From: Pseudorhodobacter ferrugineus DSM 5888
GTDB taxonomy: Bacteria; Pseudomonadota; Alphaproteobacteria; Rhodobacterales; Rhodobacteraceae
Length of the DNA: 64,000 bases
NCBI RefSeq assembly: GCF_000420745.1
Contig: NZ_ATVN01000002.1
Location: forward strand, 62,001-126,000
Direction: 5' to 3'
Each line of letters begins with the position of its first letter. Position 1 is the first letter of the stretch. This document shows, piece after piece, positions 62,276-64,000 of this stretch. The notes below the pieces were generated by a model that did no database searches, was not told the DNA's origin, and was given only the letters and a program-made list of their open reading frames with translations. A program made the position numbers and the translations under genes.

Positions 62276-62645
62276 TAATCATAGGCTTAATTGATTATCG
62301 CAGACGCGATCGCCAGATGCCCGAACGAGCGGCTAGCGCGACCCGCTCCCATTGACTGGGACGCCCAACCCCGGCAGGTACACGACAGACCCGGGTCTTT
62401 TCACACCAACCTCATCACCTGCACCAAAAGCGCGGTGACTTGACGCCGCCTTGTGCGACGCCGGAACGAAAGGCTCACCCATGTCCCAGCAGGCTGGATC
62501 GTCGGGGCCGCCAGCAATCAAGATATGATCGACAAGCCAAGACTCCAAGCCACGGCCCTAGGCCCAGATATTGACCTAGATCTGATCCATTTGCACAACG
62601 ACGCCAGCGGTCAGGAACAACCCAGCCATCGGGATGTGACACCTA
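62276..62645. other. Non-coding or degraded stretch before the IS remnants
   Basis: No convincing gene. A minus-strand frame at 62333-62548 (71 residues, beginning MESWLVDHILIAGGPDDPAC) has protein-like composition but no start context, and I recognise no family; it could be gene debris interrupted by insertion events. The CTAG at 62643-62646 borders the following IS-like end. Confidence 0.4.
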
Positions 62646-62795
62646 GGGGCTGTTGACGTTAACCTTGTCTGAATGATTGTTGCCGCGATTGGAATGAAGG
62701 CTTTGAAGCTCTGGTCTGTTTTGCAGGAACGCATCGCTCTCCCTCTGTTTTCCTTCAGTTTGCCGAAGTAATTTTCGATAAGGAGTGAACTGATG
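62646..62795 (-). pseudogene. Remnant of an IS5-family-like transposase, C-terminal end
   Basis: On the minus strand the last part of a DDE transposase can be read: LLIENYFGKLKENRGRAMR then KTDQSFKAFIPIAATIIQTR. This matches the C-terminal pattern (IE-x-x-F-x-KLK-x-x-R then ATR-x-x-K) of IS5-type transposases. Only about 45 residues survive; the rest is replaced by the IS110-type element. The outer end GGGGCTGTTGACG, next to CTAG, looks like a terminal inverted repeat of that lost element. Confidence 0.65.
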
Positions 62796-62869
62796 CGGTG
62801 GATGCCCCCACCCAACGGCATCAATTGTGCCAAGATGGTTTTGTTGTAACCACCAAGAGGGAGGCATCC

Positions 62870-63883
62870 ATGTCGGAGATTAGCATATTGGCGATCGATC
62901 TTGCCAAGAACAGTTTTCAGGTTTGCGGCGTCAAGGCCGATGGCGTCGCCGTTTTCAACAGATCAGTGTCGAGAACGCGGCTGATCCAGCTTTTGTCGGA
63001 TCAGAAGGCCTGTATTGTGGCGATGGAAGCGTGTGCCACGTCGCATTACTGGGGGCGGATGGCACAGGCACATGGCCATGAAGTGCGTATTATCCCCGCG
63101 ATTTATGTCAAACCCTTCGTGAAACGGCAGAAGAACGATTTTGCCGACGCAGCGGCAATTGCGGAGGCCGCGTCCCGCCCCAGCATGAGTTTCGTGGCGG
63201 TGAAGAGTGCCGAGAAGCAAGGGCGAGCCGTGGCATTCAGGACGCATCAAAGCTTTGTGCGGTAACGCACGCAGCTGATCAATGCGCTCAGGGGCCATCT
63301 GGCCGAGTTCGGTTTGGTCGCGCCAAAAGGTCCTGCTTATTTGAAGGTTCTGCAATCAGCCTTGAATGGGCCGCAGGTTGATTTGCCCACAGTCGTGCGC
63401 GAGATGGGGCAGCTTTATCTGCGGCAAATAGATCAACTGACAGAGATTATCACGCGTCTGGCCGATGAACTGGAAGCCGCGACAAAAACCGATTGCGAGT
63501 TGCGGCGCCTTTGCACCGTGCCGGGCATCGGTCCAGTAACCGCTGGTGCCATCGCGGCGTTCGCCCCAAACCTTGAGACCTTCGACAGTGGCCGGAACTT
63601 TGCTGCATGGTTGGGTTTGGTGCCGCGACAACACTCGACCGGCGGTAAGACCCGCCTTGGCGCTGTCAGTAAAATGGGTCAATGTGACATCCGTAAGCTG
63701 CTAATCGTCGGGGCCATGAGCGTGATCCGCTGGGTTGTGCGTAGAGGCGGCAGCACTAGCCGGTGGCTGGCCAATATCGTCGCGCGCAAGCCTCGAATGG
63801 TTGCCGCAGTTGCTTTGGCCAACAAGATGGCCCGGATGGTTTGGGCCATGACGACGAAAGGCGAGGACTATAGAATAGCGTAA
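62870..63883 (+). pseudogene. IS110/IS1111-group transposase with internal stop
   Basis: The reading frame runs 338 codons from ATG 62870 to TAA 63883, with one internal TAA at 63263-63265. The DEDD RuvC-like half has LAIDLAKNSFQVCG, AMEACATSHYWGR and KNDFADAAAIAEA. The C-terminal Transposase_20 half has TVPGIGPVTAGAIAAF and the Ser region AAWLGLVPRQHSTGGKTRLG. Around the stop, SFVR-stop-RTQLINALRGHL corresponds to the family's VRQRTxLINALRGHL, so a Gln codon mutated to TAA. The copy is therefore probably inactive on its own unless the stop is read through. A GAGGGAGG site precedes the start. Confidence 0.88.
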
Positions 63884-63996
63884 CCCCGAGTCGCGAGGCG
63901 CGGGGTTACGCTGTAGGCCGCAAGGCCTGGGCAAGGTGATCGACAGACGGAGTAAGCGACACGGACTTCAAAGTTCAAGACAGGAAAACCCAGGCC
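63877..63996 (+). ncRNA. Candidate bridge RNA (seeker RNA) of the IS1111-group element
   Basis: Directly at the transposase 3' end: a perfect 12-base stem (AGCGTAACCCCG at 63877-63888 with CGGGGTTACGCT at 63901-63912, 12-base loop) that contains the transposase stop codon; then AGGCC-GCAA-GGCCT (63915-63928), a GNRA-capped hairpin; then GGCCTGGG (63924-63931) complementary to CCCAGGCC (63989-63996). IS1111-group elements are known to carry their guide RNA in this downstream position. The RNA role is inferred from location and folding only. Confidence 0.6.
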
Positions 63997-64000
63997 CGGG

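What the first reader, a model, noticed from the sequence alone, without database searches (positions are those of the whole stretch)
62870..64000. IS1111-group transposase with a nonsense codon but an intact-looking guide-RNA region
The protein-coding part carries TAA in place of a conserved Gln codon, while the downstream flank folds into a 12-base perfect stem that includes the stop codon, a GNRA hairpin and a long-range stem. That the RNA part looks preserved while the protein is broken suggests either very recent inactivation, read-through, or mobilisation in trans by an intact copy.
Basis: partly seen in the sequence, partly recalled or inferred. Interest (0 to 1): 0.62.

Follow-up and report, generated by a model that had tools for sequence, protein, structure and literature searches.

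The report
Jumping gene with one stop mutation
This is an ordinary RNA-guided bacterial insertion sequence (IS1111 group) that landed in the end of another insertion sequence and was then switched off recently by one stop mutation; its guide RNA still matches the site it sits in, but no working copy remains in this genome.

Summary
It is a complete 1,374-bp IS1111-group insertion sequence at window 62791 to 64164, so its last 164 bp lie beyond the window. Transposase codon 132 reads TAA; it is Gln in every relative above 42% identity (more than 80 copies). The downstream RNA lies inside the element and its fold has strong covariation support. Its two guide segments, CCCGGGGC and TGAACCG, match the occupied target TGAAC|CGCCCCGGG, the tip of an IS3-family element. 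In related elements with other targets, the same two RNA positions carry other sequences that mostly match their own flanks.

The contrast "RNA preserved, protein broken" is not supported. Apart from the one nonsense codon the protein is as well kept as in relatives (dN/dS 0.06, no indel). The RNA carries more lineage-specific changes than in any relative, two of them a compensatory pair. The best reading is very recent inactivation. Read-through has no support. There is no intact copy in the genome to mobilise it; only a 118-bp relic of a second copy was found. It is a new member of a known kind, with an IS3-tip target that I did not find described in the papers searched.

The parts
62786..62790 (+). 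TGAAC: left half of the target, the outermost 5 bases of the IS3-family element that was hit
   Evidence: Uninterrupted IS3 tips in other loci read TGAACCGCCCCGATTT, TGAACCGCGCCGGGTTT and similar; nearly all left flanks of this element group are TGAAC
62791..62797 (+). Left terminal extension, 7 bp, TGATGCG
   Evidence: Boundary fixed by comparing flanks of many copies
62798..62809 (+). Left subterminal inverted repeat GTGGATGCCCCC, 12 bp, perfect match to the right one at 64150-64161 (L006 4150-4161)
   Evidence: Sequence; conserved in relatives
62870..63883 (+). DEDD (IS1111-type) transposase gene, 337 codons, broken at codon 132
   Evidence: PF01548 and PF02371 hits; tblastn to relatives
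63263..63265 (+). Nonsense codon TAA in place of the conserved Gln132 codon
   Evidence: Gln in all relatives above 42% identity
63877..63912 (+). Hairpin that overlaps the native stop codon; variable in sequence, conserved as a hairpin, uninterrupted 12-bp stem in this copy
63915..63928 (+). GNRA hairpin AGGCC-GCAA-GGCCT
   Evidence: hairpin kept with other letters in sphingomonad relatives
63931..63940 (+). 5' arm of the long-range closing stem; its partner lies beyond the window at 64134-64143 (L006 4134-4143)
63973..64000 (+). Start of the predicted 77-nt seekRNA hairpin, which continues to 64049 (L006 3973-4049)
   Evidence: Closing stems with covariation, helices 6 to 8
63995..64000 (+). 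[quoted passage not shown] the second guide TGAACCG lies beyond the window at 64021-64027 (L006 4021-4027)
   Evidence: Match to own flank and to flanks of relatives, including other target classes at the same RNA positions
62791..64000 (+). Part of the element inside the window; the right end (GGGGGCATCCAC + ACA) is at 64164, followed by CGCCCCGGGTTTACCGGAG of the IS3 element (L006 4165 on)

Best explanation
A complete IS1111-group insertion sequence of 1,374 bp, inserted 5 bp inside the left terminal repeat of an IS3-family element and inactivated very recently by one nonsense mutation (most simply CAA to TAA) in its DEDD transposase gene. When it worked, the transposase gene and the 3' RNA were presumably transcribed together. 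A roughly 77-nt seekRNA hairpin held two guide segments in an internal loop; [quoted passage not shown] The transposase used it to excise the element as a circle and insert it at TGAAC|CGCCCCGGG. Shown here: element borders, target, conserved fold, guide-target match, the nonsense codon, and the absence of another intact copy. Inferred from published work on IS1111 members: transcription, circle, seekRNA processing and mechanism.
For: Borders and target from about 30 copies. Guides match flanks at fixed RNA positions in several target classes. Fold covariation. Recent death: dN/dS to the nearest relatives 0.06, no higher than between intact copies; no indel and one stop in 337 codons; protein profile score normal. 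The RNA was under selection on this lineage: G106A with C166T restores a helix pair, and position 111-161 is A-U only here. Internal control: since splitting from the C26 relic, the relic has 8 changes in about 107 bp of left end and this copy has none. Known IS1111 biology from PMC11187229.
Against: The nearest known intact relative is distant (dS about 1.2), so the nonsense mutation cannot be dated finely. No expression data. A base-calling error at the TAA cannot be excluded from the assembly alone. Some relatives used for the RNA alignment come from metagenome assemblies.
Confidence: 0.9

Rival explanations
1. The copy is mobilised in trans: its RNA and ends are kept intact because a transposase from another copy moves it.
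For: For ISEc11, transposase, RNA and ends work when supplied on separate DNA molecules (PMC11187229). Ends and RNA here are complete.
Against: The genome has no other intact copy. The other IS110-family proteins found are separate; the one aligned is 37% identical. No further copies or tnp-less derivatives with these ends in the genome apart from the relic. The exact target TGAACCGCCCCGGG was not found.
Confidence: 0.04
2. Read-through of the TAA (suppressor tRNA or recoding) still gives a working transposase.
For: The frame is open after the stop and under normal constraint.
Against: A very recent mutation explains the same facts. Relatives carry a Gln sense codon, and nothing seen here suggests recoding of TAA in this genome (not tested genome-wide).
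Confidence: 0.02
3. The TAA is a sequencing or assembly error and the element is intact.
For: Everything else in the element looks functional.
Against: Single C to T errors are uncommon in assemblies of this quality (99.98% complete); 13 of 17 private CDS changes in this copy are the same G/C to A/T kind, which fits real mutation.
Confidence: 0.04

Closest known systems
ISEc11, ISKpn4, ISPa11, ISPst6 (IS1111 family with tested seekRNA; PMC11187229)
   Same: DEDD transposase of similar length, subterminal inverted repeats with 7-bp and 3-bp extensions, long 3' noncoding region, top-strand guide 5' of bottom-strand guide, no target duplication
   Different: Different target (tip of IS3-family terminal repeats); transposase dead; RNA not tested in the laboratory
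IS4321 and IS5075 (IS1111 family; insert in terminal repeats of Tn21 transposons; title of the paper cited in PMC11208160)
   Same: Insert inside the terminal inverted repeat of another mobile element
   Different: Other host element; not compared at sequence level here
ISEc21 (IS110 family; targets the transposase gene of IS3-family elements; PMC11187229)
   Same: Uses IS3-family elements as landing sites
   Different: RNA upstream of tnp, guide order reversed, target inside the IS3 coding region
IS621 bridge RNA (PMC11208160)
   Same: Recombinase guided by an RNA loop with left and right target guides
   Different: IS110 group with the RNA in the left end; a donor-binding loop was not identified here

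Membership tests
IS1111 group of IS110-type insertion sequences | DEDD/RuvC transposase with C-terminal Transposase_20 domain and GL-P----S/TG motif | tested here: met
   PF01548 and PF02371 hits; GLVPRQHSTGG in the sequence; 337 codons
IS1111 group of IS110-type insertion sequences | Subterminal inverted repeats of about 11-13 bp with 7-bp left and 3-bp right extensions | tested here: met
   GTGGATGCCCCC / GGGGGCATCCAC, 12 bp perfect; TGATGCG left, ACA right
IS1111 group of IS110-type insertion sequences | Long noncoding region downstream of tnp with a structured RNA | tested here: met
   About 280 nt after the native stop; covariation
IS1111 group of IS110-type insertion sequences | Two guide segments, top-strand complement 5' of bottom-strand complement, matching the insertion site | tested here: met
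   CCCGGGGC then TGAACCG; target TGAAC|CGCCCCGGG
IS1111 group of IS110-type insertion sequences | Insertion without target duplication | tested here: met
   Flanks join to the uninterrupted IS3 tip sequence
IS1111 group of IS110-type insertion sequences | Circular intermediate and transposase-bound 70-100 nt seekRNA | not testable with these tools
   Needs PCR and RNA sequencing
Functional (autonomous) IS1111 element | Uninterrupted transposase reading frame | tested here: not met
   TAA at codon 132

The most novel reading that the evidence does not exclude
The dead copy is still an active RNA locus: its seekRNA is made and guides, or titrates, a related transposase arriving in trans, so the element survives as a non-autonomous RNA-bearing unit.
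Probability: 0.03. Interest if true: 0.5.

Novelty: new member of a known kind. Interest (0 to 1): 0.22.

Why it matters
As a single copy it matters little. As a group it adds a clean natural case of seekRNA reprogramming: closely related IS1111 elements with the same RNA architecture carry different guide letters at the same two positions, and these mostly match their own insertion sites (IS3 tips, a CAATTT|TGCATGCC class, a CTCTGT|TGCACAAA class). That gives targets and guide positions for testing programmability without new mining.

Tried and rejected
Rfam search with relaxed threshold gave only a chance hit. First read the conserved left-flank TGAACTG as the end of the element; uninterrupted IS3 tips showed that TGAAC is target. 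First read AGTTCA in the RNA as a guide because it complements TGAACT; rejected because it is a helix strand (GTTC/GAAC) and the order did not fit, while CCCGGGGC and TGAACCG sit in the loop and vary with target class. Considered the perfect 12-bp stem as a terminator or as specially selected; no T run follows and relatives do not keep it perfect. Considered relaxed selection on the whole branch; dN/dS does not show it. The per-copy count for L050 mixed in a second element at that locus and was ignored. I did not identify a donor-binding loop.

Full report
What is there. The window lies at bases 62001-126000 of a 290-kb contig of a 3.43-Mb, 42-contig genome. The contig continues past the window, so I fetched it as L006 (window position = L006 position + 60000). 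The finding covers most of a single IS1111-group insertion sequence. Its transposase gene starts at ATG 62870 and ends at the native TAA 63881-63883, with TAA at codon 132 (63263-63265) and no other defect. The halves match PF01548 (DEDD_Tnp_IS110) and PF02371 (Transposase_20).

Borders. Aligning flanks of about 30 related copies from genomes and plasmids places the left end at TGATGCG (7 bp) plus GTGGATGCCCCC (62791-62809) and the right end at GGGGGCATCCAC plus ACA (L006 4150-4164, i.e. 64150-64164). This is the 7/3 arrangement described for IS1111 members (PMC11187229). The element is 1,374 bp and runs 164 bp past the window. Left of it is TGAAC and right of it CGCCCCGGGTTTACCGGAG. Uninterrupted IS3-family tips in other loci read TGAACCGCCCCGATTTTACCGGAGG and similar, and an intact-looking IS3-type transposase pair (HTH_Tnp_1 and rve domains) lies next to relatives such as L044. 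So the element sits 5 bp inside an IS3 terminal repeat, without target duplication. The IS3 copy here is itself degraded, and a fragment with a weak DDE transposase hit flanks the left side.

The stop codon. Residue 132 is Gln in every relative above 42% identity, more than 80 copies. The change is most simply one transition, CAA to TAA.

The RNA. From the native stop to the right end there are about 280 nt. On 21 sequences a 62-pair structure forms standard pairs in 90.9% of cells, with 50 both-side changes against 17.1 in shuffles (0 of 500) and far above slid controls. The strongest covariation is in the hairpin at RNA positions 99-175 (63973-64049), a self-contained 77-nt unit close to the measured seekRNA lengths of 70-100 nt. 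Its internal loop holds CCCGGGGC (complement of the target right half GCCCCGGG) on the 5' side and TGAACCG (the target left half plus CG) on the 3' side, around an invariant GAGC/GCTC hairpin. This is the order reported for IS1111 seekRNAs. In relatives with other targets the same positions hold other letters that match their own flanks in many cases: CAATTTTG and GGCATGCAA for the CAATTT|TGCATGCC class, GCTCTGTTG and TTTGTGCA for the CTCTGT|TGCACAAA class, GTAAGCG for GTAAG|CG. This assigns the guides by natural variation.

Is the RNA specially preserved? No. In the 12-member close clade this copy has 10 private changes at otherwise invariant RNA positions, the most of any member, and 7 private amino-acid changes including the stop. 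Leave-one-out profile scores put the protein in the normal range and the RNA just below it. Most private changes in both parts are G/C to A/T transitions (13 of 17 in the gene, 8 of 10 in the RNA). Two RNA changes compensate each other (G106A with C166T), and 111-161 is A-U only here, so the fold was under selection on this lineage. Pairwise dN/dS to the two nearest relatives is 0.06, no higher than between intact copies (0.05-0.15), with dS about 1.2. Both parts were functional until recently, and then one hit fell in the gene.

Other copies. The genome holds no second intact copy; the only other match is 118 bp of left end on contig 26, cut by another IS3-type element. In the left end it shares derived letters with this copy and has 8 further changes in about 107 bp where this copy has none. 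A search for the target pattern TGAACYGCSCCGSG with up to one mismatch found no TGAACCGCCCCGGG. Trans mobilisation is possible in principle, because RNA and ends work in trans for ISEc11, but nothing in this genome supports it.

Mechanism. Shown: borders, target, conserved RNA fold, guide-target match, nonsense codon. Inferred: joint transcription, seekRNA processing, circle, insertion. In the circle the joined ends would place TTGCAA (RE) 17 bp before CATGAT (junction), a plausible junction promoter (inference).

Verdict. Ordinary dead member of a known kind. The target and the natural guide variation are the useful part.

Noticed in passing
L013, L015, L023, L024, L047, L049, L050, L120 (right flanks of relatives): In 8 of 29 copies of the group with a right end, the right end is fused at an AAC|CG-like site to an inverted 5' part of the same element (own left end or start of tnp, antisense GAACCG or GAACCGCCCC), in several cases near-identical to its own left end. 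This suggests recombination at a target-like site inside the element, perhaps after insertion in both tips of one IS3 element.
   Followed up: partly
L018, L091: Two relatives have the 5' part of tnp deleted between the left end and about codon 45; L091 keeps the whole RNA region and both ends, so broken-protein copies with an intact RNA region occur elsewhere.
   Followed up: partly
L010, L046, L119, L040 (right ends): The right inverted repeat is interrupted after GGGGGCA; in L010 and L119 the same sequence ATGGTA follows, and in L010/L046 an IS110-type gene follows, so another IS seems to target this repeat.
   Followed up: no
L006 5249-5683 (65249-65683, beyond the window): Fragment of a second, different IS110-type transposase (PF02371) next to the degraded IS3 element: a small graveyard of insertion sequences.
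   Followed up: partly
window 62576-62833, minus strand: Remnant of a DDE transposase (PF13586, weak hit) directly left of the element.
   Followed up: partly
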